A stretch of DNA of 64,000 nt from Symmachiella dynata (GTDB lineage Bacteria; Planctomycetota; Planctomycetia; Planctomycetales; Planctomycetaceae). The stretch covers positions 1,045,001-1,109,000 of the forward strand of contig NZ_CP036276.1 of NCBI RefSeq assembly GCF_007747995.1. Reading direction: 5' to 3'. This document shows, piece by piece, positions 274 through 19,801 of the stretch (position 1 is the stretch's first letter; every line of letters begins with the position of its first letter). The notes below the pieces were generated by a model. It searched no databases and was not told where the DNA came from. It saw nothing but the letters and a program-made list of their open reading frames with translations. A program made the position numbers and the translations under genes.

Positions 274-1269
274 CTAGGGCACCACATCCTTAAGCCCCGC
301 GCGGGCTTCGCCGGCGTAGGGGGTGTCGGCATAGCGGGTGGTGACTTCGCGTAACAGGGTTTGCCCCTGTTTGGTTTGGCCGGCTGCGATGAGGGCATGG
401 GCCGCTTCCAGGCAGGCGCGGGCGGCTAATTGGGTGTCGTGATCGTAGACCAGCGGGACCCACAAGAAGGCTTGGGCGGCGCGGAGGGGGTGTTGGGTCG
501 CCAGATAGCCGCGACCGAGTAAATAATAGGGGCCGGCGCGGAGCCCCTCGGGCATGCTTTCGATCTGGCCGGCCCAAGTCCGCAAATCGTTATCGGTCAC
601 TTGGCCTTGGCGAAGTTTCGTCCGCCAAGATTGGCCGCGGGCCAGACCCATAATTCGGCTGTCGGGGTGCGAACTGAGTTTTCTCAAGACCTGAGCGGCG
701 GAGTCCCCTTGCTGCGGGTCGTTGATTAGGAAACTGGCGCCGAGCAAACGTGCAGCGGCGCGGGGGCTTTCCATCCATTGCCGCGCCCGAATGATGTCGT
801 CGGGCGTCAATTCGCGGGCCGTCCACAATAAAGGCAGATGTTTGTAGTAAAATGTGTCGGGATCGCTTTCGACGATCGTCAAAAACTTGTCTCCGGCAGC
901 GCCGTAATTGCCCAGTTGCGTTAAGCATTGAACCTCAAGGGCCAGGATTTCGCGGCGGACCCAACGCCGCAACTCTTGGTCGAGCGCCAGGTCCAACCAA
1001 CGGAGTGCTTCGTCCCAACGCTTGGCCTGGAGTGCTTCCAGCCCGGCCTCGTGATTCGGCGAGCGGGTGTATTCGACCTTGGTGATTGTTCCCACATCGA
1101 AGGAGCGTTGTTTGCCGCTGGAGGCCATCTCGATTTCGATCGTTTGCCCGTTGTAGTCGACAATGCGGCCTGAAATCCCGATGGAGGCTCCGTTGGGTTG
1201 GCGGAAGACGACACGATCTTTCTCTTCACCCCGCGCTGCTGCAGCTACCAGCAAGATAGTGGCGATCAT
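274..1269 (-). CDS. Secreted TPR-like repeat protein
   Basis: The product is about 331 residues. The ATG at 1269 is chosen because it opens directly into a short signal-like segment (MIATILLVAAAARG); the longer frame would overlap the upstream vWA gene. After the signal comes a small beta-rich stretch (GISGRIVDYNGQTIEIEM) resembling the short beta modules found in planctomycete exported proteins. The remaining residues are helical pairs typical of tetratricopeptide repeats (for example ALRWLDLALDQ and AAQAFLWVPLVYD). It lies 73 bases downstream of the vWA membrane protein on the same strand, so the two are probably co-transcribed and act together at the envelope. The partner and exact role are unknown. 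Confidence 0.75.
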   Translation of the reverse strand: MIATILLVAAAARGEEKDRVVFRQPNGASIGISGRIVDYNGQTIEIEMASSGKQRSFDVGTITKVEYTRSPNHEAGLEALQAKRWDEALRWLDLALDQELRRWVRREILALEVQCLTQLGNYGAAGDKFLTIVESDPDTFYYKHLPLLWTARELTPDDIIRARQWMESPRAAARLLGASFLINDPQQGDSAAQVLRKLSSHPDSRIMGLARGQSWRTKLRQGQVTDNDLRTWAGQIESMPEGLRAGPYYLLGRGYLATQHPLRAAQAFLWVPLVYDHDTQLAARACLEAAHALIAAGQTKQGQTLLREVTTRYADTPYAGEARAGLKDVVP

Positions 1270-1342
1270 CAGGCCGACTTGTCGGAGTGGGCGGGACGCG
1301 CATGCGGTTTGAGTGCGGATATGGAGGGCAGGGCTCAATGGA

Positions 1343-2353
1343 TCACCGTTTGGACAAATTTTTGACGTCGAGATACCGATACGAGCCGCCATTTTTGCGA
1401 GCCAAATCGGCCAGGAAACTGGCTTCCAGTTCCGCATCTAGCTGTGGCCCGACGCCGAATTCAATGCAGTGAATCCGCGTGCGGCCATTGTTGAATTTGT
1501 TGATGCGGGCCATATCGCGATTGCTGATGCGGTCGCTTTGGTCGGCGTCAGTGAGGAAATAGATGACTTCGGGAGTCAGTCTGAGGGCCATCATCAACGC
1601 CGGCACATGATCCGTGCCGCCGGTCGGCCCTCGTTCGTCGACGAAATTATAGGCCAGACGTTTGTTGGTCTCATTGGCCCAATAAATATCATCACTCCGC
1701 CCGCGACGATGCCAGGGGTAAACCTCTTGGTTGTAATATATAATTTGGAATTGCTGCGTCGGCTCGAGTAATGAGATGCTGTTTTTGAGTTCTGCCTTGG
1801 CGTAGTGGATCGCATTGTGGCTTTGCATGCTGCCGGAGCAATCGATCACAAAGGCAAAGCGGGTCCCTTTGTCTTTGGTTCCGAAAAACTGCGTTTCGCC
1901 GCGGCCCGGTGGCAGGCCGCCCGCCGGAGGGGCGGGGCGGGCAGGGCGGATTGGTTCTGCGAGCGGCAGTTCCACATCAGCTATCGCCGGTCCCGGAGCG
2001 AAAACGTTATCGACAGGGAGGGGGGTATCGAGCAGGTTATCAACCAGTTCTTCCGGCGGAGTTTCGTCGACTTGTTCTTCGGTGAGCGAATCGTCGGCAT
2101 TGGATTGCTGGGTATTGTCCGATTCCTGCGGCTGTTCCTCGGGGTTGGCCGCCTCTTTGACAAAAATATCGACCACGCGTCCAGAATCATCCAGCCCCTC
2201 GGTGACGCCGGTATTTTGAAAAATCAGGGCGACGCCGACAAAGACAATCATGTGAAAGCCGAGCGACATTAGCCAACTGGGCAGAAAAAACGCCGGGAGC
2301 AGCCACTCAGGCCACCGCGAGCGAAATTGATTGTTGGGGCGTTTTTGGGACAT
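1343..2353 (-). CDS. Membrane-anchored von Willebrand factor A domain protein
   Basis: This 336-residue protein has a basic N-terminus, one transmembrane segment at about residues 18-46, and an acidic, proline-rich linker (about 55-150). A vWA domain follows from about 165 to the end. The metal-ion-dependent adhesion site is intact at D171-C-S-G-S175, with a later TGG-T-D loop. vWA domains bind protein partners through a divalent cation. The topology puts the vWA domain outside the cytoplasmic membrane. It leads a probable operon with the TPR protein downstream and is divergent from the secreted protein at 2689. Confidence 0.8.
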   Translation of the reverse strand: MSQKRPNNQFRSRWPEWLLPAFFLPSWLMSLGFHMIVFVGVALIFQNTGVTEGLDDSGRVVDIFVKEAANPEEQPQESDNTQQSNADDSLTEEQVDETPPEELVDNLLDTPLPVDNVFAPGPAIADVELPLAEPIRPARPAPPAGGLPPGRGETQFFGTKDKGTRFAFVIDCSGSMQSHNAIHYAKAELKNSISLLEPTQQFQIIYYNQEVYPWHRRGRSDDIYWANETNKRLAYNFVDERGPTGGTDHVPALMMALRLTPEVIYFLTDADQSDRISNRDMARINKFNNGRTRIHCIEFGVGPQLDAELEASFLADLARKNGGSYRYLDVKNLSKR

Positions 2354-2688: not shown

Positions 2689-3234
2689 ATGCGACGCGTC
2701 TTTTTAACGGGTGGAACTGCGGCGGCGCTGGTTTTGTGCATTCACTCCCTCGCATTCGCGCTGGGGGGCAACTATCCGGAGGGGCCGCTTGCCGAGCAGC
2801 ACACGGATTGGCCGCCGGGGCTGTTCGAGTTGGCGAAATCCGAGGGCCGGGTTAACGGCTATTGGGTCAATTCGAATGATTTTTTCTTCTATCGCGGGGA
2901 CGCGGAGTCATTGGAGAAATTTTTAGCGGTCTACGGCAAGGTGGGGGATACCCCGCTGATGGTTGTCCTCCACGCGGGGGCCGTGCCGCTCACTGGTTCG
3001 CTGGGCAAACCAAAAACAATTCCCTTCGATTGGCAATTGAGCGTGACGCGACGCGGTTGGGGTGCTCCGTTGGATCCGCGTCGCCCCAAAGACGACCCGG
3101 GCTATGTGGCAACGATCCATATTTGGCTGAGCGACAAACTTCCGCTGGATCGACTGAAGATTCCCAAACACATTGACGTGTCGTCGGCGGGTGACATTCA
3201 AAAATTCATTGAGCGCCACAAATCCCGCGAGTAA
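2689..3234 (+). CDS. Small exported protein, unknown function
   Basis: The product is about 181 residues. The start is set at ATG 2689, which has an AGGAG at 2676-2680 eight bases upstream and is followed by a clear signal peptide (MRRVFLTGGTAAALVLCIHSLAFA). The mature part is about 155 residues of mixed alpha/beta character with an FFFYRGD segment and a conserved-looking HIWLSDKLPLDRLKIP strand. No enzyme motif is visible. It sits just upstream of the sigma factor gene (96 bases), so it might be part of that locus, but nothing proves it. Function unknown. Confidence 0.75.
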   Translation: MRRVFLTGGTAAALVLCIHSLAFALGGNYPEGPLAEQHTDWPPGLFELAKSEGRVNGYWVNSNDFFFYRGDAESLEKFLAVYGKVGDTPLMVVLHAGAVPLTGSLGKPKTIPFDWQLSVTRRGWGAPLDPRRPKDDPGYVATIHIWLSDKLPLDRLKIPKHIDVSSAGDIQKFIERHKSRE

Positions 3235-3330: not shown

Positions 3331-3909
3331 ATGAATGAGCAGCAGGAATGGGCGATTGCTCAAGGATTGCGTGCCGGTGACCCGGAGGCCTGGCGGACGT
3401 TTTACGATACGTTCTGCGAGCGGGTCTGGCGGACAGCTGCGCGGCGGGTCGGGGCGAACTCGGCCGATGTGGCGGATGTCGTGCAGGAAACATTTCTGGC
3501 AGCGGCGCGTTCCGCGGGGCAATTTGATCCCGAGCGGGGCCCGCTCTGGGCTTGGCTGACCGGGATTTTGCGGAATCAAGTGGCGCTGCAATTTCGCAAA
3601 AAACAGCGACACCAACGGATTCGCGAATTGGGCGTTCCGTCCGGTCAGGATCGACACGAACAGCAACGTGCCGAATTGGCGGCGCTGGTTCGTGAGGCTT
3701 TGACCGAACTGAACGATGATTATGGCTCATTATTGACTGCAAAATATCTCGACGAGGAAACCGTCGAGGAGATTGCTGCCTCTGAGCAGACGACCACGAC
3801 GGCTGTCCGATCAAAACTGGCACGTGCTCGCCGCGCGTTTCGCGACGCTTATGATCAATTGACGACCGATTCTCCTGTGACGAACACGGGTCAAAACCAT
3901 GACAAGTGA
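3331..3909 (+). CDS. ECF-type RNA polymerase sigma factor
   Basis: This 192-residue protein has a sigma-70 region 2 at about residues 12-85 (FYDTFCERVWRTAARRVG, then DVADVVQETFLAAARS, the helix that binds core polymerase and the -10 element) and a region 4 helix-turn-helix at about 115-175 (EEIAASEQTTTTAVRSKLARARRAF). It directs RNA polymerase to a specific set of promoters. Its last 11 bases overlap the start of the giant gene at 3899, so the two are translationally coupled. The overlapping partner is therefore the likely controller of this sigma factor. There is no C-terminal extension. Confidence 0.92.
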   Translation: MNEQQEWAIAQGLRAGDPEAWRTFYDTFCERVWRTAARRVGANSADVADVVQETFLAAARSAGQFDPERGPLWAWLTGILRNQVALQFRKKQRHQRIRELGVPSGQDRHEQQRAELAALVREALTELNDDYGSLLTAKYLDEETVEEIAASEQTTTTAVRSKLARARRAFRDAYDQLTTDSPVTNTGQNHDK

Positions 3910-6900
3910 ATCCTTTTCCGACCAATCCGATCATGATGAAGAACGCATGATGGAGATGTTCCGCTCACTCGACGGCGGTGCGCTGCCGCCGGATCGACTG
4001 TTTCTCGACGAACTGCGGCAGCGGTCGACCGAGGAATTCGTGCGCCATGCCAAGCGCAGTTCCGCAGTTGCACCGGTTGCAAATCCGCCTTCGACTGCTC
4101 CCGTGGTGTGGAATGGACGGTGGGTGGTCGTTGCGGTCGCGGCCTTGGTGATTTGTGTGGGGTTCTTTTTCTCGCCACTGACGCAGGAACAACCGGCGTT
4201 GGCGTTTGGTGAGGTGTTGGCCAAAGTTGCCGCAGCGGACACGCTGCATCTGCAGTTGACCCGCGATGGAAAAACGGACGAAGTCTGGATTCGTCAGCCG
4301 GGGCAAATGCGGTGGCAGGAGGATCCGGCGCGGTATCGCATTGTACAGGGGTCGCGATTGTGGCGAATTGATGAAGAGGAAAACGTGGCGGCAGGTGAAG
4401 AATCAACCTATTTCGACGGCGTGGATTCGCACTTTGATGTGTTGCAGCTTTTGCAGATCGATTCGGCGGAGGGGCTGGCTGCGGAATTCGAGCGGCGGCC
4501 CAGCGGGCAGACGCGGCGGGATGGCAAGGATTGTTATGTCTATCAATTGCAGTTACCTGGGGAGGCCGGTGCTGCGAATGCAGATGTCAGTATTGAAGCA
4601 TTGGTTGAAATTAATACCAACGAACTGCGCTGGTTGGAAACCAAAGTCCGACGCGATGGCCGGTTTGTGCCGGCTGGAGAAATCCGTGTGTTGGCGCTGA
4701 ATCGTCCGATCGAGGATGAGAAATTCGTTGTCGGAACGCAGCTCACCGAGGATGGGCGGATCGGCAAGGTGTCTGACGTGCAGGGGCTGGTGACGATCAA
4801 ACCGGTGATGAATCGGCGTTGGACACCGGTCGGCGGGCCGATGTTGATCAAGCCGGGGGACTGGCTGCGGACTGACATCCGTGGGCCGAATGCGGCGGAA
4901 GTGAAATTGGAAGGGGGCGGTACGATTACGCTCGGTCCGGGGTCGCTGATCGAATTGATCAAACCGGGCGACGTCCGTTTGCTGCAAGGGGAGGCGCAGA
5001 TTGCTGCTGCGGAAAAACCGGTGACGTTGCGGGGACCGGGGGAACAGGTGATTCCGGTGGCCGAGACACAGTTTTTCCGCATCACGGATGAAAAACTAGC
5101 GATGGTCGCAGACAAGCCGCTGTGGCTGACGGGGTTTGAAGGGACGACGACCAACGAGGTCATGGGGTCGCTGATTGCCAACGTCGACGATCGGAACGTT
5201 TCGCTAACAATCGGTGCGCATCATGTCAAAATCGAAATTCGCGACCAAATTGCCCGCACGACTATCGAAGAATCTTTTGTGAATCACACCGGCGCGCAGT
5301 TGGAAGGGGTGTTTCATTTTCCGTTGCCGGCGGACGCCTCGATCTCCGGGTTTGGTATGTGGATCGGCGATGAACTGGTCGAAGCGGACATTGTTGAGAA
5401 ACAACGAGCGCGGGAAATCTATGAAACAATCCTCCGCGAAAAACGGGATCCGGGACTGTTGGAATGGACCGGCGGGAATATTTTTAAGGCCCGCGTATTT
5501 CCGATTTTACCGTATTCCGAAAAACGGATCAAAATCACGTATACGCAGGTGCTGCCGCTGCGGGGGCATCAGTACCGATACAGTTACGGCCTGCAAAGCG
5601 AAATGCTCAAGCAGACGCCGCTTCGTGAACTGTCGATTGACCTGAAAGTGCATTCGGCCATGCCGTTGGCCCAGGTGACCTGCCCGACGCATCCCACGCG
5701 GATCGAAGTGGCTGGGAATTCCGGGCATGTGGAATTCGCCGCACAGGATTATCGGCCGACGCGCGATTTTGAGGCGGTGATTGAAGTCGCCGATCAACAA
5801 GCTGACGTGGTGATGATTCCCCACCGGCGGGGTGAGGATGGATATTTTCTGATGCAGTTGATGCCACCCGCCGGAGAAGGCCGTTGGCAGCGCGATGTGT
5901 TGCCTAATGGCGACCCGTTGGATCTGTTGCTGATCACGGACACGTCCGGATCGATGGATCGTTCGCAGCGTGCGAAACAAACGGAGTTCGTTGCCACGCT
6001 TTTGGCATCGCTGTCACCGCAAGACCGGTTCAATCTGATCTGCAGCGACGTACAGTCGCATGCGGTCTTTAAGGAACCGGTCGCGGCCACTGAGGACAAC
6101 ACGGCTGTGGTTCGCCAGTTTATGGATGGCCGTGTTTCGTTGGGATGGACCGATCTGGATGCAGCGTTTTCCCAAGCGATGCAGCGTGTTCAACCGCAGA
6201 CACACGTGGTGTATCTCGGCGACGGGATCGTGAACACGACGACCGCCGATCCGATCGCGTTTGCCAATCGATTGAAGCGGATGTATGCCGATCAGGGGAC
6301 ATTCCATGCGGTGGCGACTGGGAACAGTTATGAATCCTCGGTGCTGCAAGCGATCGCCTCATTAGGCGGCGGGTCATGGCGAGCGGTCAGTGGCGAAAAG
6401 GGGCCGCGGGTGATTGCCACGGAATTACTACAAGAGATTTCTCAACCGGCGCTGCGCGATATTCAGATTCAGTTCCAAGGCCTGCAGGTCGCTGCTGTTT
6501 ATCCCGAGCAATTGCCGAACGTCCCGGCGGGGCGGCAACAAGTGATTCTTGGTCGGTATCTGCCCGAGGGGCGCGATCAAGTGGGTGAGGTGATTGTGAC
6601 TGGCAAGCTGAATGGCGAGACGGTTCGTTATCGCAGCCGCGTGACGTTGGCCGATGCGGAGTCGGGCAATTCGTTTATCCCGCGATTGTGGGCGCGAAGC
6701 CATTTGGATCATCTGTTGGCGCAGGGAGGTTCGCAGTCGATTCAAGACGAGATCATTGCGATGTCCGAAGAGTTCCACATCATGACACCGTATACGTCGC
6801 TCTTGGTGCTGGAAAGCGATGCGGATCGTGAGCGATTCAAGGTCGAGCGGCGTTTTCAGATGCGCGACGGCGAGCGGTTTTTTGCCAAAGGGCTGGAAGA

Positions 6901-9900
6901 CGCGAACTATGAACTCAAGCAAAAACAGATGCTGGCCGCCAAGGAGTGGCAAACGCAACTGCGGGCGGCTGTGCTACAAGAACTCTCGGCGATGGGGCGG
7001 ACGATTCCGGTGACGAGCCAAAGTGCAGCGGTGTCGACTCCGCGCTCGGGAGGCATGGCAGGTGTCGGGGGGAGACTGAGGGGGAATGGTCAATATGGTT
7101 CTTTCTTCGGCTTTAGGAAAGACACTTCCAGGTTTGGCATAGTCGGCAAAAAGAATTGGGGGCTCGGCTTCTCCGACGGCGACGGTATTTTTACCGACCG
7201 TTTCTCAGTCCTAGGTGACTTGCGACAGCAGGGCGAGACTTTGGACTTCAAAAAACGAGACTTCCCATCATCGTCCTATGAGTACGGCGGTGGGGAAAGC
7301 TCGCTTTCATACACCATCAACGGCGGGTTGGGGTTACCGAGCGCCGGTTGGACGAATCCTCGTATGCTGGATCTGGAGGTGGGGCTACAGTCTGTCGATG
7401 AGATAGAGCAAATGCAGCTCTGGGACGGCCCAGTGCTAGGAGAACAGATCGGGCGACGGTCCCGACGCCGTAGCAAATTGGAGGAGGCGAATCAGCCGTT
7501 TTTCGGCGGAACGCGATTGTCGTATGAGTTAGAATCAAGGATTGCCTACGGCAATCGTATAAGTAGTATCGGGTTTGCCGGTGTCCCTATCGTGAGTTCC
7601 TCCGTTGCGAACGTGCTAAACGACGTAGTGCCGCAGGTGCCGGGAGTGCCACAGCCGAGCAAACTACAACCGTCGCCCGAAAATTGGCCGGCTGCTGCTG
7701 TGGAATTGGCGGACAGTCTGCTTCGCACAGAACAATTGGCCGAGCTCAAGACCGGGTTGGAAATCACGCGGACGAGCGAATCTTTCGATCCGCGTTGGAA
7801 GAGGACCACGGTGCGGTCGGAACGGTTGGAATTGGTTTCGCCAGCGGCGTGGCTGATGCGCAATGAACAGGTGGGCAGCCAGACGTTCCTTCAATGGTGC
7901 GATGAAAAACAGCGGGGAATTCTTTCTGAAGCGTTTTTATTGGGACAGGTCCGCGACTCCGCAGCGGAGGATCTCAAACAACCGCCGCTGGATTTGGCGG
8001 ACTATTCGCTGCATTCGATTGCCGGTCGATATGCGTCCTACACAGCCACGTTGCTACCTGCAGGCGAAAACCGTGCCACGCTGGTGCTCCAACATCCTGA
8101 TGACGACGATCGCAAAATCACGTTTTCGATCGATACGCAGCGGCACGTGTTGTTGAAAATCATCCATGAGAACGATGGCGAAGCCAGCGAAACAACGTAC
8201 GGCGATTTTGTCGAAGTCGGCGGTCGTTGGTGGGCGCAGCAGATTGAATACAGCAATGCGGACGGCGAGCAGACGCGATTGATTCGCCAAACCATCACAG
8301 CCTTACAGCCCGAAGTCTTTGACCAGCGGATGCAGACGGCACTGGCGCTGCGGGAGCAAGCGCTCGTGTTCCCGCAGCCGCTGCCGACGGTGCATGCGGC
8401 CCGTCGAGCGATTGCCGGTGGTGAGGCTCAGTTCGAGCATTACGTGACCATGTTGTTGTATCACGCGGCCACGCAGCAGTGGGATCGCGTCTGGGAAGTG
8501 ATGCCCGGCTTGGAGCTGGCAGCGACGGGGAAACCGGGTATGCGTTGGGTGCGCGATCAAGTGCTCCGCATCAGTCGCCGAAATCACGAGTTGCAGCGCC
8601 GCATACTCGAGGAAGCGGCAGCAATTGCCAAGCAACCAGTTGCCGATGATCTCTTCCTGGCCGAATTTCTGGCGGGGCAGACATCCGGCATTTTGCAGAC
8701 AAACGAACAGTTGGAATTGCATGATGTTCTCAAACCGGTGTTCGACCGCCAACCGGACTCTGCGCAAGGGCCCAAGCGTTGGTTACAGCGACAAGCCAAT
8801 CTGCTGGAGAATAGCGGCCGGGTGCGCGAAGCTTTGGTGGGGTATCAAAAGTTGGCGGCAACGTATCCGCAGGACATGCACCTGCAAACACAATACGCCT
8901 ATAAGCTGGCGCAGCGTGGTCAATATGCGGCTGCTTATGACTGGCTCGACAAGGTGCTCGCGTCGCAACCGCTGTGGAACGAATACGAACTTACCTCGTT
9001 GTGGGAGACTTACGCGGGGTTCCTGAGCGCGCAGTCGCGGTATCCGAATCTGGTGGCCTACTTAGCTGAGTGGATCGCCGAGAATCCGACCCACCACAAC
9101 GCGTATGGCCATTACCTCCACGCTCTGATTTGGAACAACCAACTGGAGTCGGCCGAACAGTTGATGACCGATTGGTTTGCGTTGGCGAAACAGTCGCAAC
9201 CGCTCAGCGCTCCACAGATGTCACAATTAACCGCCGCCGTGCGACTGGCGATCGGGCGCGGCTATCGTTTACGGACGGATCGGCTGCTGGAGGAATGGGA
9301 ACAACCGCTGGTCAACGTGGTGCGGCAAAGTTTCCAGCGCGAACAATTTCGGGATCTGGCTAATGACATCATGGGCAGTTCAGCGTTCCAGCGCAGCGCA
9401 GCTAGCCGGGTGATTCGCACAGAACTCGCGGAACGACTTCCTGGATTGTTGGAAACGCTCAAACCTCGCGATATTCGCAACTATACCAACTGGCTGTCGG
9501 TCAATGACCCGGTGATCGAACAGGCAACATGGAATAAGATTGCCGAGATATTACGGAAGCGTTGGGATGCGGAGGAGAACGAGAATTCGCGACGTCTGTT
9601 GGGAGACCTTTTGCGGCAGATTTATTCACAGCATTTCGCCGTCCAGCCGCAACTGGAGTTTTTGCGGGCTCGATTGGCGCGGTCCAGCGACCGTTATCAT
9701 GATCAGCTGGTGTCCGCGCTGTTTCATTTACTGTTAGGGCAGCCTTGGTCGGCCGAGTCTGAAGACGAGTTGTGGTCGCTCGTTCCCAATACGGCTGAGC
9801 ATCAGGACGCGTCGCAACGGTTGTCGCTTCAAGTCCACCGGTTGCGGAACTTGATTGATGGCTTAACGCAAACGCGATTCGACGCCGAGTGGCGAAACGT

Positions 9901-12900
9901 TGAGCATCCCGAGAAATTGAAACGTGATGAGTATCGCGACCAACGTGAACAGGCGATGCAGCAGGCTCGCACGGCTGTCGCGGATCGTTTGGCGGTCGAA
10001 ATGGACAAGCAACAACCGCCACTGCGGGATTGGTACCAAGCGGAATTGGTGTATGCCAACGTTGTGCTCGATCGCAATCTGGATCAAGCCGCCGCGCAAT
10101 GCTGGCAGGTGCTGGGCGAAACGCCTCCTGTGGAAACCGAAGCGACGCGGTTGGCTGGAACAGCGGCGCTACGGGAACGGGCGTTGGCGACGTTGATGAA
10201 TCTTGCTGCCCGCAAAACCGCAACAGCAGCGGAACTTGCGCGGTTACTGGCTTACATTGATGCGGGCATTGCTGCTGGCGGAGAGTCGGCAGAAAAATGG
10301 CGGCACCAAAAATATCTGATGTTAGTCGCCTTGGACCGCGCCGACGAACTTGTGGCCGCATTGCGGGGCTGGATCGGGCAAAGTGAATTTGCCAACCAAT
10401 GGCGAGTTGTCCTGGCCCGGTTGCTGGCCGAGCGAGGCGAGATTGAAGCAGCGGTGAAGTTATTCGAGACTGTCGAACAGGACGAAGAGTTGGCACCCGC
10501 TGATTATCGGGGGCTGGCCGAGTGGTATATGGCGCTCGACCGCCGTGAGGATTACGAACGGGCGCTGCAGGAAGTTTATGCCGCGAGTGGAGAACATGAA
10601 CTGCAAAATTGGTTGAGGAATCAACGCCGGCAGCAAAGCAATAATGAACTGACCACGGAACTGGATCCGCAGGTTCTCTATGCATTGCGATCCTTGCTCG
10701 CCCGGGCGACACATCCGCAGAATCACCTCTCGCTGGTGCGGGAATTCTATCAACTCAACCATGACTTCCGCTTGTTGGAAAGCCTGGCGGGCGCGGTTGT
10801 GGGGCAGACACCGGAGCGGATCTATCCGTTCCTGCAAGGCATGTCGTCGGTGTTGGCGGAGATTCGCGACGAAGCGACCGCCGATGAGCTATTGGCCAAC
10901 ATAGCGACGGTTCGCAAGCAGGCAAAATCCGCAACCGATCAGCGGGCCTTGGATCTGCTTGAGGTGCTCGTCGAACGGCGAGCGGCGGAATTGCAAAACC
11001 AACCGGGCCCCCATGCCGCTGCTGCAATCGCGGCACTGAAGCGAGCTTTCAATCGTCCTTGGGAAGCGGGAGAGCAGCGACTGATGGCGGAGTTCTTAAA
11101 TTCGCTCGGCCAGATTTCGCAAACCGATTTAGCGCAGGAGCAAGTGCGTGAATTGCATGAACTCTACGAACATGCAACGCCCGGTAGCGAAGCGCGGTTG
11201 TACATCGGCCACCGCTTGGCGATAGCCTCGGCACGGTACGGCAAACTTGATAGGGCGGTTCGCTGGTTGCAGGTCGTGCTGAATGAATACGAACTGGGTA
11301 ACAAGGGCTTCGTGTTGCAGGATGTCCAAGGACCGATTTATTCGTGTTTGGATTATCTGGAAAGCCAACAGCACTTCGCTGCTGCGGAGGAACTTGTTGT
11401 CCATTGGATCAAACTCCTGGGTGACCAGACGCTTGAAGTCCGGTTGAACTCTGTCTATTTGAGTGCGTTGCAACAAGGCGGAGAGGTGTCGTTGGGGAGC
11501 GGCGCGGAGTTGTATCGCAATTTGCAGCAACGGTTGAAGCAGCAGTTGTCCGTTGCAGCCGACGCGCAGCGCTATGGATTGGTCTCGCTGTTATGTGACG
11601 TTTATCGAGCGGCCTACGATCAGCAGATTGCTACGATCAAGGAAGATCTCCAAGGCTTTGCGACGGGAGTCGTTCCTGATTTGCTCAAACATCAACAATC
11701 ACATTACGAAGGGATCATTCGCCGTGTTAATGAAACGTTGGATCATGTTGCCGGTCCGGAGAAGGCGCTTGAGTTTCTGGTGACGAGCATGGAAGCGGAA
11801 CCGGCTCGCTATCGTTATAGCCGCAACGACAGTTGGAACCACTTTGCGGGACGTATCAATGAACTGCGCAGGCGTATCGCAAACCTCGGCGCGATCAAGC
11901 TCCCGTTATTGGTCATTGTCACGCGTGAATTGCGTCGCGATCTGCTGTCGCAGCGATCGCGCAACCAAGCAATTTATCACAGTGGTTATCGGGAGTTTTG
12001 GCAGCAACAAACGGCTGCGTTTGCGGCGGTGGCCGAAGAGGTTCTCGCTGCTCATCGTGATTCGCCGGCCGTGATTACGTATGTCGCGAACTATTTCTAC
12101 AACGGTTTGCAGCAATACGACCGAGCAATTCAGATTTATTTCCAAGCGAACGATCGTGGACTGTTGGATGACGGTGGCCAATATGCGCTGGTGATCGCAC
12201 TGCAGGGGCGGCAGCGGTATGGCGAGTCGATCCCCGTATTGCGCGACCTCGTCGAGCGCGATGCGGGCAATCTCGAATATCGCGAGCGGCTGATGGAAGC
12301 GTACCACTACGCCGAGCGGCCTGAGGATCTGGTTGCCTTTGTCGATGAAACTGACGACTATCTCCACGAAGGCGACCGTTGGAACGAAGCTGCCATGGCG
12401 GCACTCGCGCGGGGTTGTTTGGTGGGGGATTTGAATGAACGGGCGATCGGTTATTTCAACGAAGCCATCGCCCTGCATCAGCGGACGCACCCGAATCGAG
12501 GAGTCGGCGACGGGGTTCTCTCGATTTACTATCAGGAAGTCTCCACAGCGCATGCCGAACTCGGGCAAACAGACAAATCGGTCGAGGCGGCTTGCGGCGC
12601 GATTGTTAGTTGGGGAATGCGACAGAACGAACGGCAGCAGGCCATCGACTCGTTGGTTAGCGTGCTCAGGGGAATTCCTGACCGCGATGCCTATGTCGCG
12701 AGGCTCGATGCCGAAACGGAAAAGACCGGCCAAGACCGGCCGATGGTTCGCCGCGCATTAGGGCAAGCCTATTTGCAACTCGGGCAGCCGCAGGCAGCAG
12801 CGACGCAATTGGAGTTGGCAGTCGAATTGCAACCGGCCGATATGCAGGCACAAACGCTACTGCTGGAGTCTTATGAAAAACTGCAGGATCAGCCGAAGAT

Positions 12901-13309
12901 CATCGCGCAACTACTGCGGATGACTGAATTGCAGCCGCGTGAGATTGACCTTTATCGCCGACTCGGCGCACAGCTCGCAGACGATCCCGCCCAGCAGGAG
13001 CGGGCCTATACGTCGATCGTTGAAGAGACGCCCAGTGAAAGCGAAGGGCATGTGATGCTGGCGGAAATTCGTCAATCGCAGAACAACTGGGAGGCGGCTA
13101 GCAAACATTGGGAGGCGGCCGCCGAGATTCGCAAATTGGAACCGACCGGCTTGTTGGGCTTGGCCAAAGCACAGGTCCATCAACGACAATGGCCGGCCGC
13201 GGAGAAGACATTGGAAAAACTTCGCAATACGAAATGGCCCCAGCGATTTGACAAGGTGAAAGCCCAGACGCGAGAATTGCAGCGGCAGGTGGATCAGCAC
13301 AACGAATAG
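3899..13309 (+). CDS. Giant membrane-anchored FecR/VIT/vWA/TPR protein, probable sigma-factor partner
   Basis: This is a 3136-residue protein starting inside the sigma gene. In order: an acidic cytoplasmic N-terminus (1-72) with room for sigma binding; one transmembrane helix (75-91); a LolA/RseB-like beta segment (about 100-285); a FecR-like domain (about 288-372); a VIT domain (about 420-570); and a vWA domain (about 672-850) with an intact metal site D681-T-S-G-S. Then come a glycine-rich spacer (about 1047-1254), a second LolA-like segment (about 1267-1484), and TPR-type helical repeats to the end (about 1490-3136). FecR domains relay envelope signals to ECF sigma factors; VIT plus vWA pairs mediate protein binding. 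I infer a membrane anti-sigma or sigma regulator that reads an extracytoplasmic signal. The single open frame shows no break. Confidence 0.88.
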   Translation: MTSESFSDQSDHDEERMMEMFRSLDGGALPPDRLFLDELRQRSTEEFVRHAKRSSAVAPVANPPSTAPVVWNGRWVVVAVAALVICVGFFFSPLTQEQPALAFGEVLAKVAAADTLHLQLTRDGKTDEVWIRQPGQMRWQEDPARYRIVQGSRLWRIDEEENVAAGEESTYFDGVDSHFDVLQLLQIDSAEGLAAEFERRPSGQTRRDGKDCYVYQLQLPGEAGAANADVSIEALVEINTNELRWLETKVRRDGRFVPAGEIRVLALNRPIEDEKFVVGTQLTEDGRIGKVSDVQGLVTIKPVMNRRWTPVGGPMLIKPGDWLRTDIRGPNAAEVKLEGGGTITLGPGSLIELIKPGDVRLLQGEAQIAAAEKPVTLRGPGEQVIPVAETQFFRITDEKLAMVADKPLWLTGFEGTTTNEVMGSLIANVDDRNVSLTIGAHHVKIEIRDQIARTTIEESFVNHTGAQLEGVFHFPLPADASISGFGMWIGDELVEADIVEKQRAREIYETILREKRDPGLLEWTGGNIFKARVFPILPYSEKRIKITYTQVLPLRGHQYRYSYGLQSEMLKQTPLRELSIDLKVHSAMPLAQVTCPTHPTRIEVAGNSGHVEFAAQDYRPTRDFEAVIEVADQQADVVMIPHRRGEDGYFLMQLMPPAGEGRWQRDVLPNGDPLDLLLITDTSGSMDRSQRAKQTEFVATLLASLSPQDRFNLICSDVQSHAVFKEPVAATEDNTAVVRQFMDGRVSLGWTDLDAAFSQAMQRVQPQTHVVYLGDGIVNTTTADPIAFANRLKRMYADQGTFHAVATGNSYESSVLQAIASLGGGSWRAVSGEKGPRVIATELLQEISQPALRDIQIQFQGLQVAAVYPEQLPNVPAGRQQVILGRYLPEGRDQVGEVIVTGKLNGETVRYRSRVTLADAESGNSFIPRLWARSHLDHLLAQGGSQSIQDEIIAMSEEFHIMTPYTSLLVLESDADRERFKVERRFQMRDGERFFAKGLEDANYELKQKQMLAAKEWQTQLRAAVLQELSAMGRTIPVTSQSAAVSTPRSGGMAGVGGRLRGNGQYGSFFGFRKDTSRFGIVGKKNWGLGFSDGDGIFTDRFSVLGDLRQQGETLDFKKRDFPSSSYEYGGGESSLSYTINGGLGLPSAGWTNPRMLDLEVGLQSVDEIEQMQLWDGPVLGEQIGRRSRRRSKLEEANQPFFGGTRLSYELESRIAYGNRISSIGFAGVPIVSSSVANVLNDVVPQVPGVPQPSKLQPSPENWPAAAVELADSLLRTEQLAELKTGLEITRTSESFDPRWKRTTVRSERLELVSPAAWLMRNEQVGSQTFLQWCDEKQRGILSEAFLLGQVRDSAAEDLKQPPLDLADYSLHSIAGRYASYTATLLPAGENRATLVLQHPDDDDRKITFSIDTQRHVLLKIIHENDGEASETTYGDFVEVGGRWWAQQIEYSNADGEQTRLIRQTITALQPEVFDQRMQTALALREQALVFPQPLPTVHAARRAIAGGEAQFEHYVTMLLYHAATQQWDRVWEVMPGLELAATGKPGMRWVRDQVLRISRRNHELQRRILEEAAAIAKQPVADDLFLAEFLAGQTSGILQTNEQLELHDVLKPVFDRQPDSAQGPKRWLQRQANLLENSGRVREALVGYQKLAATYPQDMHLQTQYAYKLAQRGQYAAAYDWLDKVLASQPLWNEYELTSLWETYAGFLSAQSRYPNLVAYLAEWIAENPTHHNAYGHYLHALIWNNQLESAEQLMTDWFALAKQSQPLSAPQMSQLTAAVRLAIGRGYRLRTDRLLEEWEQPLVNVVRQSFQREQFRDLANDIMGSSAFQRSAASRVIRTELAERLPGLLETLKPRDIRNYTNWLSVNDPVIEQATWNKIAEILRKRWDAEENENSRRLLGDLLRQIYSQHFAVQPQLEFLRARLARSSDRYHDQLVSALFHLLLGQPWSAESEDELWSLVPNTAEHQDASQRLSLQVHRLRNLIDGLTQTRFDAEWRNVEHPEKLKRDEYRDQREQAMQQARTAVADRLAVEMDKQQPPLRDWYQAELVYANVVLDRNLDQAAAQCWQVLGETPPVETEATRLAGTAALRERALATLMNLAARKTATAAELARLLAYIDAGIAAGGESAEKWRHQKYLMLVALDRADELVAALRGWIGQSEFANQWRVVLARLLAERGEIEAAVKLFETVEQDEELAPADYRGLAEWYMALDRREDYERALQEVYAASGEHELQNWLRNQRRQQSNNELTTELDPQVLYALRSLLARATHPQNHLSLVREFYQLNHDFRLLESLAGAVVGQTPERIYPFLQGMSSVLAEIRDEATADELLANIATVRKQAKSATDQRALDLLEVLVERRAAELQNQPGPHAAAAIAALKRAFNRPWEAGEQRLMAEFLNSLGQISQTDLAQEQVRELHELYEHATPGSEARLYIGHRLAIASARYGKLDRAVRWLQVVLNEYELGNKGFVLQDVQGPIYSCLDYLESQQHFAAAEELVVHWIKLLGDQTLEVRLNSVYLSALQQGGEVSLGSGAELYRNLQQRLKQQLSVAADAQRYGLVSLLCDVYRAAYDQQIATIKEDLQGFATGVVPDLLKHQQSHYEGIIRRVNETLDHVAGPEKALEFLVTSMEAEPARYRYSRNDSWNHFAGRINELRRRIANLGAIKLPLLVIVTRELRRDLLSQRSRNQAIYHSGYREFWQQQTAAFAAVAEEVLAAHRDSPAVITYVANYFYNGLQQYDRAIQIYFQANDRGLLDDGGQYALVIALQGRQRYGESIPVLRDLVERDAGNLEYRERLMEAYHYAERPEDLVAFVDETDDYLHEGDRWNEAAMAALARGCLVGDLNERAIGYFNEAIALHQRTHPNRGVGDGVLSIYYQEVSTAHAELGQTDKSVEAACGAIVSWGMRQNERQQAIDSLVSVLRGIPDRDAYVARLDAETEKTGQDRPMVRRALGQAYLQLGQPQAAATQLELAVELQPADMQAQTLLLESYEKLQDQPKIIAQLLRMTELQPREIDLYRRLGAQLADDPAQQERAYTSIVEETPSESEGHVMLAEIRQSQNNWEAASKHWEAAAEIRKLEPTGLLGLAKAQVHQRQWPAAEKTLEKLRNTKWPQRFDKVKAQTRELQRQVDQHNE

Positions 13310-13937: not shown

Positions 13938-14777
13938 TCAGTTCCAGCGCGTTACTTCCTGTCGTGCGATTGCGAGTTGTGCCGTCAGATGTTCGGTCTC
14001 TTCAGGCGGGCAGTTCTTCAAGCAGCATTGCAGCACGTCGATCGCTTGGCCGGGGCGATTTGCGCGGAGGGCGATCAGTCCCAGGTCGCGGCGTTGGTCG
14101 TACGCTCCAGGTTGTAACAAAACAAGCCGATGTTGCACCATCCACGCAGCAGGCCAGTTTTGGGTTTGTGAATGAATCGCCTTGAGGTTGTTGAGCATGC
14201 GAACAACGGTTTTTCGCGCGGAGGCCGGTTCCAACAAGACTTCACATTGTTCCGGGGGCAGGCCGGAGGCTTGGCTGGCGCGGTGTAATGTTTCTTCGAA
14301 GGACAGCACACAGCCGCCGCAAAACGCATCGACAAAGATCGGTCCGTCCACTGCTTCGTACCGCGTGAGAAAATGCGCGGGAGTGGAGACCCCGTGCAGG
14401 GTCAAACCGGCGCGACGGGCGACTGCCATATACAGCAAGGACAAACTGATCGGAATGCCCCGTTGCCGCTCGATCACACGATGCAGGTAGCTATTGTCGG
14501 GATCGCTGTAGGTTTCCGTATCGCCGGAAATTGCGTGCTGCACGGAAATGCAATCCGCAACAATTTTCAACGCGTCCCGATCGGACTTCGCAGCTGCGAC
14601 TTTCCCGGAGATCTGCTTGCCCGTCGTATCGATCCAACTGAGCGTTTCTTCGAAATCCAAATCGGGATAGGCGTCGCGTGCTAACTCTAGCGCCGCAACA
14701 GTGAGATCAACGTTGGACCGCCGTGTCAGCAACTTGGAAAATTCCGTGTCGCAACGATAGTCGGAATCAAACTCCAT
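13938..14777 (-). CDS. SirB1 family protein (transglutaminase-like fold plus TPR tail)
   Basis: This 279-residue protein carries the SirB1 core: DNSYLHRVIERQRGIPISLS, then a GLTLHGVSTPAHFL segment and FVDAFCGG, at about residues 92-160. These match the transglutaminase-like papain fold typical of the family. The C-terminal about 80 residues (LNNLKAIHSQTQNWPAAWMV, RRDLGLIALRANRPGQAIDVL) form TPR-like helices, also usual here. The biochemical role of SirB1 proteins is not settled. It is upstream of and probably co-transcribed with the P-loop NTPase. Confidence 0.85.
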   Translation of the reverse strand: MEFDSDYRCDTEFSKLLTRRSNVDLTVAALELARDAYPDLDFEETLSWIDTTGKQISGKVAAAKSDRDALKIVADCISVQHAISGDTETYSDPDNSYLHRVIERQRGIPISLSLLYMAVARRAGLTLHGVSTPAHFLTRYEAVDGPIFVDAFCGGCVLSFEETLHRASQASGLPPEQCEVLLEPASARKTVVRMLNNLKAIHSQTQNWPAAWMVQHRLVLLQPGAYDQRRDLGLIALRANRPGQAIDVLQCCLKNCPPEETEHLTAQLAIARQEVTRWN

Positions 14778-15911: not shown

Positions 15912-16508
15912 TTACGGCTGTATTGGCAGTGATTCCAGGACGTTGTCGATCAAGCCGTATTCCTTGGCTTCATTGGCCAGCATGAAGTTGTCGCGGTCCG
16001 TATCTTCTTCGATCTTTTCCAACGTTTGGCCAGTATGCTTAAGCAGGATCTCATTGAGCCGCTTCTTCATACGAATGACTTCTTTGGCGTGAATTTCCAG
16101 ATCGGTGGCGGTGCCTTCCATGCCGGCGAGCGGCTGGTGAATCATGATTCGTGCGTTGGGCAGGGCATTGCGTTTTCCTGCAGCACCGGCGGTGAGCAGC
16201 AATGCGCCCATGCTGGCGGCTTGGCCCAGACAGTACGTTGCGACGTCGCAATTGATGTATTGCATCGTGTCGTAGATGGCCATGCCGGCCGTCACCGATC
16301 CACCGGGCGAATTGATGTAGAGGTGAATGTCGGATTGATCGTCGTCGAATTGCAGAAACAGCAATTGGGCCACGATGTTGTTGGCGACGGCGTCGTTGAC
16401 CTGCGTGCCTAGAAAGATAATTCTGTCTTTAAGCAGGCGGCTGTAGATATCCATCGCCCGCTCTTCGCGGCCGCTCTTTTCGATCACATAGGGAACCAAG
16501 ACGGACAT
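15912..16508 (-). CDS. clpP: ATP-dependent Clp protease proteolytic subunit (first copy)
   Basis: This 198-residue serine peptidase forms the barrel of the Clp protease, which degrades proteins unfolded by an AAA+ partner such as ClpX. The catalytic triad is visible: serine in GQAASMGA, histidine in IMIHQP, and aspartate in [29 protein letters not shown] is the usual oligomer and substrate-strand region. Length is normal for ClpP. It lies downstream of the second clpP and tig on the same strand, a common arrangement for a proteostasis cluster. No clpX lies in the window. Confidence 0.96.
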
Positions 16509-17575: not shown

Positions 17576-19063
17576 TTATTCGTCGTCCGATTCCGCGTCG
17601 TCGTCCGTTGCCGATTCCTCCGAGGGTGTTCCGGCTCCGCAAACCGCGAAGTCGACCGCTTCAATATCGTTTTCACGGTCAGCTTCGGAGGGGATTTCGT
17701 TGAATTCAGCGGTAGAAAGCACGAATTCAATCGCCTTGCGCTCACGGATTTGAGCGGTCAGGTTTTCAATCATGCCCGATTTTTCGAGGCGGGCACGCAA
17801 CCGGCGGGGATTTTCTCCCTGCTGCATAGCCATCATGGCGATTTCCATATCGACATCGACCGGTTGGGTTTCGATTTCTTCTTTGACCGCAATGCGGTCG
17901 AGCACGAAATGCTCTTTCAAAGCTTGCCGCGTCGTCGTCACCGCGTTTTGCCGCAATTCGTTTTCGCGGGCGCGGATCTCCGACTGCGTAAAGCCGGCTT
18001 GCTGCATCTCCAGGATTTCACGCCGCAAGGCGTTGTCCACCTGACGCATGACGAGCGATTCGGGCAATTCCCAATTCGCCGACTCGGTGATTTTCTCCAG
18101 CACTTGCGTGCGGGCCGCTTGACGTTCGTCGAATTTGGCTTGCCGCTCCAACATTTCGCGAATTTGTTTTTGCAGGTCTTCTTCGGAATCGACTCCGATT
18201 GATCCCAAAAACTCTTTGTCGAGTTCCGGCAAATTTAACGTCTTGACCTCGTGGACTTTAATCGTGACTTGGACCGTCTCGCCGCGCAAATCGACATTGG
18301 CTGCTTCGGACGAAATGGTGACTTCCGCTTCGCGGGAATCATCGGCCGACACACCTTCCATCAGTTCGTCAAAACCTTCCAACTCGGCATCGTGAAACCC
18401 GAGTGTTGGTTTGAGTTGCACTGTCTGATGGTTGAACCGACCGAGCACTTCGTCCTTGTGGGTGAAGGAGAAAGAGGCTTCGACATATTGGCCTTTTTCG
18501 GCCGGTCCCTTGTGCGTTTCCAATTCGCCATGTTGCGAAAGGAATTGCAACTGGTAAGCCTCAACGTCTTCGTCGGTGATCTCGCGGACCGGTTTGTCGA
18601 TTTTGAGACCGTTGTATTCGGGAAGGTCGAACTCGGGACGAACTTCGACGTCGAATTCGTATTCGAAATCCCCTTCTTCGGGGACCTCAATGTTCTCGAT
18701 ATTCAAGTTGGGTTCGTTGATGGCATCGAGTTCGTGCTCTTCGGAGATTTGTTCCAAGCTCTCCATGAGCAATTTCTCGCGGACCTGATCGCCAAGTTCT
18801 TTGCGGAAACGCTTTTGGATCAAATCGCGGGGAACGCGACCCGGGCGGAAGCCGGGGACTTGCGCATTGCCGACCAATTCGCTGACAGCGGCGTCGTGCA
18901 CGTCGTCGATGTCCTTGCGAGGCACGATGACATGGACGTGTTTTTTGCAGGGGCCGATGTCTTTGATCTCGACCTTCAACTCCATTTTTGCGGGTGCGTC
19001 ATTTTCAGCGACGCCTGCATCTTCAGCGGTTTCGTCTGTGGTGGTCGCTTCGTTTTCGCTCAT
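17576..19063 (-). CDS. tig: Trigger factor, ribosome-associated chaperone and prolyl isomerase
   Basis: The product is about 495 residues. ATG 19063 is used because the frame further upstream runs through the tRNA-Gly gene. The ribosome-docking signature GFRPGRVP is at about residues 71-78 after a 26-residue acidic N-terminal extension. The central part (about 190-275, GQYVEASFSF...FDELMEGV) is the FKBP-type isomerase domain, and the helical C-terminal arms (about 280-450) form the substrate cradle. The protein ends in an acidic tail (EESATDDDAESDDE). It catches nascent chains at the ribosome exit tunnel. It is followed on the same strand by two clpP genes. Confidence 0.93.
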   Translation of the reverse strand: MSENEATTTDETAEDAGVAENDAPAKMELKVEIKDIGPCKKHVHVIVPRKDIDDVHDAAVSELVGNAQVPGFRPGRVPRDLIQKRFRKELGDQVREKLLMESLEQISEEHELDAINEPNLNIENIEVPEEGDFEYEFDVEVRPEFDLPEYNGLKIDKPVREITDEDVEAYQLQFLSQHGELETHKGPAEKGQYVEASFSFTHKDEVLGRFNHQTVQLKPTLGFHDAELEGFDELMEGVSADDSREAEVTISSEAANVDLRGETVQVTIKVHEVKTLNLPELDKEFLGSIGVDSEEDLQKQIREMLERQAKFDERQAARTQVLEKITESANWELPESLVMRQVDNALRREILEMQQAGFTQSEIRARENELRQNAVTTTRQALKEHFVLDRIAVKEEIETQPVDVDMEIAMMAMQQGENPRRLRARLEKSGMIENLTAQIRERKAIEFVLSTAEFNEIPSEADRENDIEAVDFAVCGAGTPSEESATDDDAESDDE

Positions 19064-19248
19064 AATCGGCAGGCCTATCGGCTCACAATTCATTTCTCTG
19101 TGAAAAAGTAGCAAGAACCGGCCGGGACATCGCCATGTCGGCGGCAAATCACGAAATCGGGACGCCAACCGTTTTTTTGGTCGGCCGCACGAAGTGAATG
19201 ACAGCAGCATTCGACGTGCGGCTGTTTTGCCGGGTGCCAATAAAAAAA

Positions 19249-19320
19249 AGCGGGTGATGGGGATCGAACCCACGACAACCACGTTGGCAACGTGGTGCTC
19301 TACCACTGAGCTACACCCGC
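19249..19320 (-). tRNA. tRNA-Gly (anticodon GCC)
   Basis: Read on the minus strand, the sequence starts GCGGGTGTAGCTCAGTGG, has the D-arm AGCTCAGTGGTAGAGC, an anticodon stem CCACG/CGTGG around loop TTGCCAA, a T-arm with GGTTCGATCC, and a 3' acceptor strand CACCCGC pairing with GCGGGTG, followed by discriminator T. The anticodon GCC reads GGC and GGT glycine codons. CCA is not encoded. It sits between tig and the sufS 3' region. Confidence 0.97.
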
Positions 19321-19801
19321 AGTACTCGGCGTTATAACAAAGCTTAGGCCGTCGACTCAAGTCAACGGACCCATTCCAGCGCTCACAATTTTGAAAAACT
19401 TCCATCTGGAGGGAATGAACCCCGCAAGTGGACAGTTTTTTAGCCGATTTTGGCGGAAAGCAACCGCGCCCAGAACAGCGGCACCCAACACCCACCGCCG
19501 CGTTCCTTCGCTTTAGCCTCGAATCACCAGCCCGCAAGGGGTCGGATTCTCGGGGTGTGCGGAGGTGGGTGCTGGCCCGCTATCGAGGTCATTTCACACT
19601 GGTACCAAATGCGAATTACCTGTCTGGACAAATCCTACATTTTAGACCCCAAAGAACAAGTAGGGAAATCACTCCTTTTTAAGAGATAAATTTCCCGAAA
19701 TTGCTCGGTGGACCAGCAAAACCCTACTATTCCTTCGGCGAGCGGCATGAACGCATCAACGATGCTGCATTTCATGCGGATGTCAGCCAGCTTCGTTGTG
19801 A
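19321..19801. other. Intergenic region with a strong potential RNA fold
   Basis: This stretch between tRNA-Gly and the 3' end of sufS has no convincing gene. It contains a long-range inverted pair, CACCCACC at 19489-19496 with GGTGGGTG at 19564-19571, extended by CCGC/GCGG. Inside is a hairpin GAATC/GATTC (19521-19525, 19545-19549) capped by CCC-GCAA-GGG, a GNRA-type tetraloop. This may be a structured RNA, but no known family is recognised. Confidence 0.4.

What the first reader, a model, noticed from the sequence alone, without database searches (positions are those of the whole stretch)
3331..13309. Sigma factor translationally coupled to a 3136-residue FecR/VIT/vWA/TPR membrane protein
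The sigma gene and the giant gene overlap by 11 bases. The giant has a short cytoplasmic head, one membrane helix, then LolA-like, FecR, VIT and vWA domains and well over 1500 residues of TPR-like repeats. FecR domains are known partners of ECF sigma factors, but a single-chain combination with VIT, vWA and this length is unusual. It suggests a surface-sensing, multi-protein platform directly regulating transcription.
Basis: partly seen in the sequence, partly recalled or inferred. Interest (0 to 1): 0.75.

Follow-up and report, generated by a model that had tools for sequence, protein, structure and literature searches.

The report
Sigma factor tethered by giant sensor
In a planctomycete, a small transcription switch protein is encoded back-to-back with a 3136-residue membrane protein whose short inside tip probably holds the switch off while its huge outside part senses something, and relatives show that the switch gene follows that tip and not the rest of the giant.

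Summary
A 192-aa ECF sigma gene (3331-3909) overlaps by 11 nt a 3136-aa gene (3899-13309) encoding a 40-residue head, one membrane helix, a LolA/RseB-like fold, a FecR-like domain, an inter-alpha-trypsin-inhibitor-type VIT+vWA module and a long C-terminal half with scattered TPR hits. Pfam FecR itself does not match the window protein.
The weight lies in the comparison. Of 90 loci on a tree (window included), 63 have a head and an intact sigma gene, 2 a head and a sigma remnant, 25 neither, none a sigma gene without a head. One more head-bearing locus, cut by a contig end, has no sigma (L072). A FecR-type head comes with sigma factors unlike the window's (7 of 7). A related 2060-2400-aa family has a third head plus sigma (7 of 8). 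In one genus the N-terminal module exists with sigma but without VIT/vWA/TPR (3 of 3).
So the N-terminal module is probably the sigma regulator and the body an interchangeable sensor: a membrane-tethered anti-sigma factor with a very large exodomain. Binding, polarity and signal are not shown; AlphaFold gave no proof of docking. New variant of a known kind.

The parts
3331..3909 (+). ECF sigma factor gene, 192 aa (r2 and r4 regions)
   Evidence: NCBIfam sigma70-ECF 79.1 bits over cut-off 42.9, below the cut-off of TIGR02989 (73.4 of 124.55 bits)
3899..3909 (+). 11-nt overlap of the two genes, suggesting translational coupling
   Evidence: in 42 of 54 relatives an in-frame ATG before the head overlaps the sigma stop (26) or lies within 50 nt of it (16); the ATG nearest the stop was taken, which favours closeness
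3899..13309 (+). giant membrane protein, 3136 aa
3938..4054 (+). cytoplasmic head (residues about 14-52): two predicted helices around a conserved PD linker; unnamed domain, presumed anti-sigma domain
   Evidence: alignment A8; no convincing Pfam or PDB match; helices in models of orthologue L110; sigma tracks it
4121..4174 (+). single membrane helix (residues about 75-92)
   Evidence: hydrophobic stretch seen in the sequence; helix at the matching place in the L110 models; no dedicated TM or topology predictor was run
4205..4738 (+). LolA/RseB-like domain (residues about 103-280; limits carried over by eye from the L110 model)
   Evidence: Foldseek: LolA 9azz TMt 0.55-0.60, RseB 2v43, MucB 6in9, E about 1e-5 to 1e-6; no Pfam match
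4742..5191 (+). FecR-like beta domain (residues about 282-431), present in headed and headless relatives
   Evidence: alignment A2 of 48; FecR profile matches 6 of 48, best E 0.0014; MtxA 4z29 E 0.0011; 5ix9 TMt 0.77-0.78 over 68 columns, assigned to this domain by inference
5216..5542 (+). VIT domain (residues 440-548)
   Evidence: Pfam E 5.3e-29; mean identity to the window residue 83-95% in 25-residue blocks at 451-550 over 35 relatives
5921..6376 (+). vWA domain (residues 675-826) with MIDAS-type motif DTSGS (motif name recalled)
   Evidence: DxSxS found in 82 of 83 loci, the miss being L101, whose frame is cut by a contig start
5228..6910 (+). whole VIT-vWA-tail block, collinear with inter-alpha-trypsin inhibitor heavy chain H4 (9c4f_I) residues 41-634
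   Evidence: phmmer E 2.6e-22
8111..8293 (+). possible second LolA-like stretch after the vWA
   Evidence: Pfam LolA_like E 0.14, below cut-off; weak
8813..8986 (+). TPR stretch (residues 1639-1696)
   Evidence: TPR_19
12737..13180 (+). C-terminal TPR stretches (residues about 2947-3094)
   Evidence: TPR_2, TPR_14 and consensus TPR structures

Best explanation
A two-gene transmembrane signalling unit. The head of the giant (about 40 cytoplasmic residues) binds the ECF sigma factor made from the overlapping gene just before it and keeps it at the membrane and inactive (inferred). The chain crosses the membrane once (from sequence). Outside it carries a LolA/RseB-like domain and a FecR-like domain, which form the sensing and cleavage-control part (inferred), then an inter-alpha-trypsin-inhibitor-type VIT-vWA module and a long partly TPR region that binds an unknown envelope or surface ligand (inferred). 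Ligand binding, loss of binding or envelope damage alters the outer part; the sigma factor is then freed by regulated proteolysis (site-2 protease as for RseA and FecR) or by a conformational change (inferred). Shown: gene order, overlap, domains as listed, and that sigma presence and sigma type follow the head and not the body. Not shown: binding, inhibition rather than activation, signal, target genes.
For: Head-sigma linkage: of 79 distinct loci with enough upstream DNA, head A with intact sigma 55, with sigma remnant 2 (L123, L127), without sigma 1 (L072); head B with sigma 5; headless without sigma 14; two broken loci apart (L070, L071). Second set: 3 head A plus sigma A (L168 by eye), 2 head B plus sigma B, 11 headless without sigma, 0 discordant among these 16. 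On a tree of 99 core sequences the 90 scorable rows read 63/2/0/25, Fisher p 3e-20 uncorrected for kinship (the states of the 16 new rows were entered by hand); 4 supported independent head changes go with sigma in nearly all of 200 random pairings. Head type matches sigma type: head B with TIGR02989 sigma over cut-off (4 of 4 tested) and canonical FecR (4 of 4 tested). Double dissociation: 837-876-aa proteins with head, membrane helix, LolA-like and FecR-like parts (the last three judged by eye) and sigma A, without VIT, in 3 of 3 loci of one genus; no similarity to the window giant downstream in the 2 checked. Third head type plus sigma in 7 of 8 loci of a related family, FecR in 4 of 4 tested. 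LolA/RseB/MucB fold just outside the membrane. M50 site-2-protease-like matches in the same genome, which most genomes have (14 of 14 controls).
Against: No direct evidence of binding. AlphaFold of a read-through sigma-plus-head chain gave head helices at pLDDT 88-92, but the same head without sigma gave 80-95, so the model does not show docking; pTM of the joined model was only 0.46; no PAE or coordinates were available. The head has no convincing match in Pfam or PDB sequences, CnrY included. The mirror-tree signal for sigma and head given the core (partial 0.45) is matched in kind by sigma and the FecR-like domain (0.36), so it is not specific. Only 4 independent changes are well supported (sign test p 0.125). 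The 10-bit head cut-off was set after seeing the scores, and the profiles were built from part of the loci that they score. L072 has a head and no sigma nearby. L159, a headless relative of the other family, has a sigma gene about 560 nt before its frame.
Confidence: 0.76

Rival explanations
1. The giant is a positive regulator: as in E. coli FecR, the cytoplasmic head is needed to activate the sigma factor rather than only to inhibit it.
For: FecR-type heads occur in the same architecture. PMC7406223 (passages) says the 59 N-terminal residues of FecR are essential for ECF activity; the abstract of PMC8144685 says the cleaved cytoplasmic FecR fragment takes part in transcription with FecI.
Against: The window head is a different, unnamed domain. 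The review PMC8103513 (section 7 part 1 read) describes membrane-anchored anti-sigma factors, inhibitors, as the regulators of 74% of ECFs with a known mechanism.
Confidence: 0.15
2. The pair is only co-transcribed: the sigma factor controls the giant gene (and others) but the head does something else, for example export targeting or membrane insertion.
For: Overlapping genes are common in bacteria (general knowledge); no binding evidence exists.
Against: Sigma stays with the head when the VIT/vWA/TPR body is gone and is absent when the head is gone; head type switches together with sigma type.
Confidence: 0.08
3. The VIT/vWA/TPR body is an ordinary exported adhesin or scaffold, and in headed forms the sigma link only reports the protein's own export or assembly state, with no external ligand. 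(A version of the best explanation, not exclusive of it.)
For: Headless forms without sigma are common in the wider phylum; the VIT core is the most conserved part.
Against: No test here separates self-monitoring from ligand sensing.
Confidence: 0.3

Closest known systems
FecI/FecR ECF systems and the FecR pairs with TIGR02989 sigma factors
   Same: ECF sigma gene followed by a membrane protein with a FecR domain outside; the window's genome has one protein over the FecR cut-off, with an ECF-like ORF (by eye) before it (L154).
   Different: Window sigma is below the TIGR02989 cut-off, the head is not FecR-type, the FecR profile does not match, and VIT, vWA, LolA-like and TPR parts are added.
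RseA/RseB and MucA/MucB
   Same: LolA-like fold just outside the membrane next to a sigma-binding tail; in MucB/RseB this fold is the presumed lipid-binding part (PMC7400510, passages).
   Different: Here the LolA-like fold is in the same chain as the head, followed by over 2800 further residues.
Class II anti-sigma factors (CnrY, NepR)
   Same: Short sigma-binding segment (PMC7406223 treats anti-sigma domains under 50 residues as possible class II; two helices without zinc motif is recalled); the modelled sigma resembles CnrH of the CnrH-CnrY complex (TMt 0.57), but equally SigW of SigW-RsiW (0.59).
   Different: No sequence similarity found; binding mode untested.
Inter-alpha-trypsin inhibitor heavy chains and bacterial VIT-vWA proteins (TIGR03788)
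   Same: VIT, vWA with DxSxS motif and following tail collinear with ITIH4. Inter-alpha-trypsin inhibitor genes are already on record for Planctomycetes (one sentence in PMC6906331, passages).
   Different: TIGR03788 score 226.2 against a cut-off of 551.65; the two other VIT proteins of this genome have no sigma upstream.

Membership tests
FecR-type anti-sigma factors | FecR domain PF04773 in the part outside the membrane | tested here: not met
   no match whole or in the segment; relatives of the domain match weakly in 6 of 48; profile-profile probability 2%
FecR-type anti-sigma factors | FecR-type class I head | tested here: not met
   no Pfam match of the head; head B profile scores -3.1 bits on the window protein, away from the head
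FecR-type anti-sigma factors | adjacent ECF sigma gene | tested here: met
Class II anti-sigma factors (CnrY/NepR) | short head with two helices and no Hx3Cx2C zinc motif | tested here: met
   sequence and models of orthologue L110
Class II anti-sigma factors (CnrY/NepR) | head wraps the outside of the sigma factor | not testable with these tools
   no coordinates or PAE returned; head confidence similar without sigma
Class II anti-sigma factors (CnrY/NepR) | sequence homology to CnrY or NepR | tested here: not met
   profile A8 against PDB chains: neither is among the 13 hits at E up to 10
LolA/RseB fold | LolA-like half barrel | tested here: met
   Foldseek on two models of orthologue L110, not of the window protein itself
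ITIH-type VIT-vWA module | VIT, vWA with DxSxS motif, collinear tail | tested here: met
TIGR03788 marine sortase targets | score over the curated cut-off | tested here: not met
   226.2 against 551.65
Functional anti-sigma factor | binds and inhibits the cognate sigma factor | not testable with these tools
   needs a binding and reporter assay

The most novel reading that the evidence does not exclude
The VIT-vWA-TPR giants of Planctomycetota and, by record title, Verrucomicrobia, Kiritimatiellae and Lentisphaerae are a large family of exported, ITIH-like scaffolds that have been plugged into transcription several times over by acquiring different anti-sigma heads with their own ECF sigma factors. 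The window's head is a new class of anti-sigma domain, and its LolA/RseB-like domain in cis makes one chain do the work of RseA plus RseB plus a surface sensor, so that the state of a giant surface assembly is read out directly by RNA polymerase.
Probability: 0.4. Interest if true: 0.78.

Novelty: new variant of a known kind. Interest (0 to 1): 0.64.

Why it matters
Planctomycetes are known for many ECF sigma factors and for very large proteins of unknown role (general knowledge). This links the two: it gives a testable unnamed sigma-binding candidate domain, a cis-fused RseB-like fold, and a natural swap experiment in which regulator heads and giant bodies were exchanged. It predicts what to look for in a giant VIT/vWA protein: a head means a sigma partner, a signal peptide instead means none.

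Tried and rejected
FecR by Pfam, by segment scan and by profile-profile comparison: not established for the window protein. Promoter conservation upstream of the sigma gene: compared in the window and two relatives only, no convincing motif. Neighbouring genes as part of the system: of three upstream neighbours two match only in L034, L035 and L074 (the last two are one record) and one only in L034; three downstream neighbours match nowhere in the loci searched, many of which end before that place. AlphaFold as proof of docking: rejected after the control without sigma. Alignments A4 and A5 were discarded because MAFFT put heads onto sigma. Mirror-tree coevolution: positive but not specific. 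A first count of the vWA motif, 56 of 83, used too narrow a pattern; 82 of 83 with DxSxS. Literature: ten searches, seen as listings with titles and starts of abstracts, showed no paper on this sigma-giant pair; the main ECF reclassification paper and two planctomycete papers that I tried are not held, so an existing ECF group number cannot be excluded.
Full report
OBSERVATION. The window holds two overlapping + strand ORFs, 3331-3909 (192 aa) and 3899-13309 (3136 aa), sharing 11 bases. The first is an ECF sigma factor (Pfam r2 and r4; NCBIfam sigma70-ECF over cut-off). The second has VIT (E 5.3e-29), vWA (E 8.2e-9) and scattered TPR matches. Its residues 444-1004 align with residues 41-634 of inter-alpha-trypsin inhibitor heavy chain H4, 9c4f_I (E 2.6e-22). 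FecR is not matched by Pfam in the whole protein (E up to 1) or in the segment alone (E up to 10).

DOMAINS. Residues about 14-52 form a head with two predicted helices and a conserved PD linker (alignment A8 of 34 heads). Pfam gives five stray families, one member each, of 34 scanned (best E 0.046); the best PDB chain has E 0.076; in the own genome the profile finds this gene at E 8.6e-18 and next 0.024. A hydrophobic helix follows at about 75-92; no topology predictor was run. I modelled an orthologue (L110) in which sigma and giant are in frame, reading the one stop between them as glycine, with 56 rows (mean pLDDT 84.5, pTM 0.46). The part after the membrane helix folds as LolA: LolA 9azz (TMt 0.55-0.60), MucB 6in9 and RseB 2v43/2v42 (E about 1e-5), and this repeats in a second model without sigma. 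RseB and MucB are two-domain proteins and their whole-chain TM-scores are low (0.33-0.39). The next domain is FecR-like only in a weak sense: 6 of 48 relatives reach Pfam FecR at E up to 1, best 0.0014; profile-profile comparison with four canonical FecR sequences gave 2% probability; MtxA 4z29 at E 0.0011; a 68-column match to the cell-surface anchoring domain 5ix9 at TMt 0.77-0.78, which I place here because 5ix9 also appears in the profile search of this domain (E 0.15).

DOES SIGMA FOLLOW THE GIANT? In the window's taxonomic family 165 of 170 genomes have some match to residues 1-1000, but most of those listed are shorter VIT/vWA proteins of about 25-33% identity. I fetched 40 stretches around the strongest matches; 36 have a sigma gene beside the giant. 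One scan of a genome collection with a family-specific segment (residues 860-1020) confirmed 146 matches, of which the best 80 were returned; it sees only relatives with one of two exact peptides. By record title they come from Planctomycetota, Verrucomicrobia, Kiritimatiellae, Lentisphaerae and a few oddly named bins. With the window that is 121 entries: 6 had no VIT in the frame, 28 were duplicates and 8 began too close to a contig end, leaving 79. Head A with an intact sigma gene: 55, at least 18 of which were not used to build the head profile. Head A with a sigma remnant: 2 (L123 keeps an N-terminal piece, L127 a C-terminal piece). Head A without sigma: 1 (L072, its giant cut by a contig end). 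Head B with a sigma gene: 5. Headless, no sigma: 14, most starting with a signal-peptide-like sequence by eye (no predictor was run). Two loci are broken (L070, decayed giant with a sigma fragment; L071). The head cut-off of 10 bits was set after seeing the scores; the weakest accepted heads (L076, L088, L093, L130) score 11-15 bits.

HEAD TYPE AND SIGMA TYPE. Head B is a FecR-type head followed by a membrane helix and a canonical FecR domain (PF04773 over cut-off in 4 of 4 tested), then the same FecR-like, VIT and vWA core. Its sigma factors pass the TIGR02989 cut-off in 4 of 4 tested, whereas the window's sigma scores 73.4 against 124.55. A second set came from a phylum-wide search: 33 of 393 genomes carry this family, counting matches of at least 150 bits, with a gap down to 97 bits (my count of the rows). 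26 of the 33 lie outside the window's taxonomic family; I fetched 25 of these. Three were contig ends (L171, L172, L182), three repeat earlier loci by their N-terminal text (L170, L175, L176), three had no head and no sigma but an unresolved start (L180, L181, L191), and the other 16 were 3 head A with sigma A (one, L168, assigned by eye at 4.9 bits), 2 head B with sigma B, and 11 headless without sigma. On a quick tree of 99 core sequences the 90 scorable rows give 63 head+sigma+, 2 head+sigma- (the remnants), 0 headless sigma+ and 25 headless sigma- (Fisher p 3e-20, not corrected for kinship; states of the 16 new rows entered by hand; rows with short cores, L072 among them, not included). 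The head state changes 7 times and the sigma state 8 times at least on that tree; 4 independent pairs lie on supported branches and go the same way in nearly all of 200 random pairings, sign test p 0.125. In an earlier tree of 83 rows L117 and L119 are headless inside the head-A part and also lack sigma.

DOUBLE DISSOCIATION. Searching 150 genomes of the order with the head profile gave 41 matches in 39 genomes. Three are in frames of 837-876 aa, all in one genus; the others lie in giant frames or fragments of them, one being a 79-aa contig-end frame that I did not check. The three proteins have the head, then by eye a membrane helix, a LolA-like and a FecR-like part, and end there; each has a sigma A gene (224-229 bits) whose stop overlaps the giant-type ATG before the head by 11 bases as in the window (my arithmetic), and no VIT match worth the name. 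The two with downstream DNA fetched show no similarity to the window giant there. So head without body keeps sigma, and body without head has none. A related family of 2060-2400-aa VIT-vWA proteins (about 30% identity) shows a third head, a membrane helix (by eye) and its own ECF sigma gene in 7 of 8 loci examined; Pfam sigma r2 and FecR are over cut-off in the 4 tested. The eighth, L159, is headless with a sigma gene about 560 nt before its frame.

MECHANISM. From this I infer that the N-terminal module is the sigma regulator and that the VIT-vWA-TPR body is a sensor or scaffold attached to it. The LolA-like fold right outside the membrane recalls RseB/MucB, whose LolA-like part is the presumed lipid-binding part and which protect RseA/MucA from cleavage (PMC7400510, passages). 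FecR is cut by the site-2 protease RseP (PMC8144685, abstract and outline), and the own genome has 9 M50 matches, as all 14 control genomes have some, so release by proteolysis is a reasonable guess and no more. Binding itself is not shown: the head helices were confident with sigma (block means 88, 92, 92, 90) but also without it (83, 80, 95, 89). Distances of sigma and head correlate beyond the core (partial 0.45 over 51 pairs, 0 of 1000 permutations reach it), but so do sigma and the FecR-like domain (0.36, 0 of 1000).

KNOWN OR NEW. Membrane-anchored anti-sigma factors are the commonest known ECF regulators, and class I, II and III heads are described (PMC8103513, section 7 part 1 read; PMC7406223, passages). 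A short two-helix head without zinc motif works like class II on paper, but no homology to CnrY or NepR was found, so I do not file it there. Inter-alpha-trypsin inhibitor genes were already reported in Planctomycetes (a sentence in PMC6906331, passages). My literature searches, seen as listings, showed no paper on this pair, but key ECF classification papers were not available. I therefore call it a new variant of a known kind.

Noticed in passing
window 1346-2353 (-) and 277-1437 (-): Divergent neighbours: a vWA protein with an N-terminal hydrophobic stretch and a protein with a TPR match, found beside the pair only in L034 and L035/L074 among the loci searched.
   Followed up: partly
window 33332-33796 (+): A site-2-protease-like (M50) match lies 20 kb from the pair in the same window.
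   Followed up: no
L123 7730-7885 and L127 7753-7938: Decayed sigma remnants, one N-terminal and one C-terminal, beside head-bearing giants in two close relatives that share a DUF6242-like upstream gene.
   Followed up: partly
L155-L158, L160-L162: A separate 2060-2400-aa VIT-vWA family with a third head type, canonical FecR (4 of 4 tested) and its own ECF sigma.
   Followed up: partly
L224-L226: Short relatives that stop after the FecR-like domain, with a low-complexity G/A/Q-rich linker between the LolA-like and FecR-like parts.
   Followed up: partly
window 13941-14777, 15915-16508 and 17579-19537 (-): Downstream neighbours are a transglutaminase-core2/TPR protein, ClpP and trigger factor, on the opposite strand.
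   Followed up: no
L154: The genome's only match over the Pfam FecR cut-off is a 523-aa protein with an ECF-like ORF upstream; its C-terminal part looks LamG-like (both judged by eye, names recalled).
   Followed up: no
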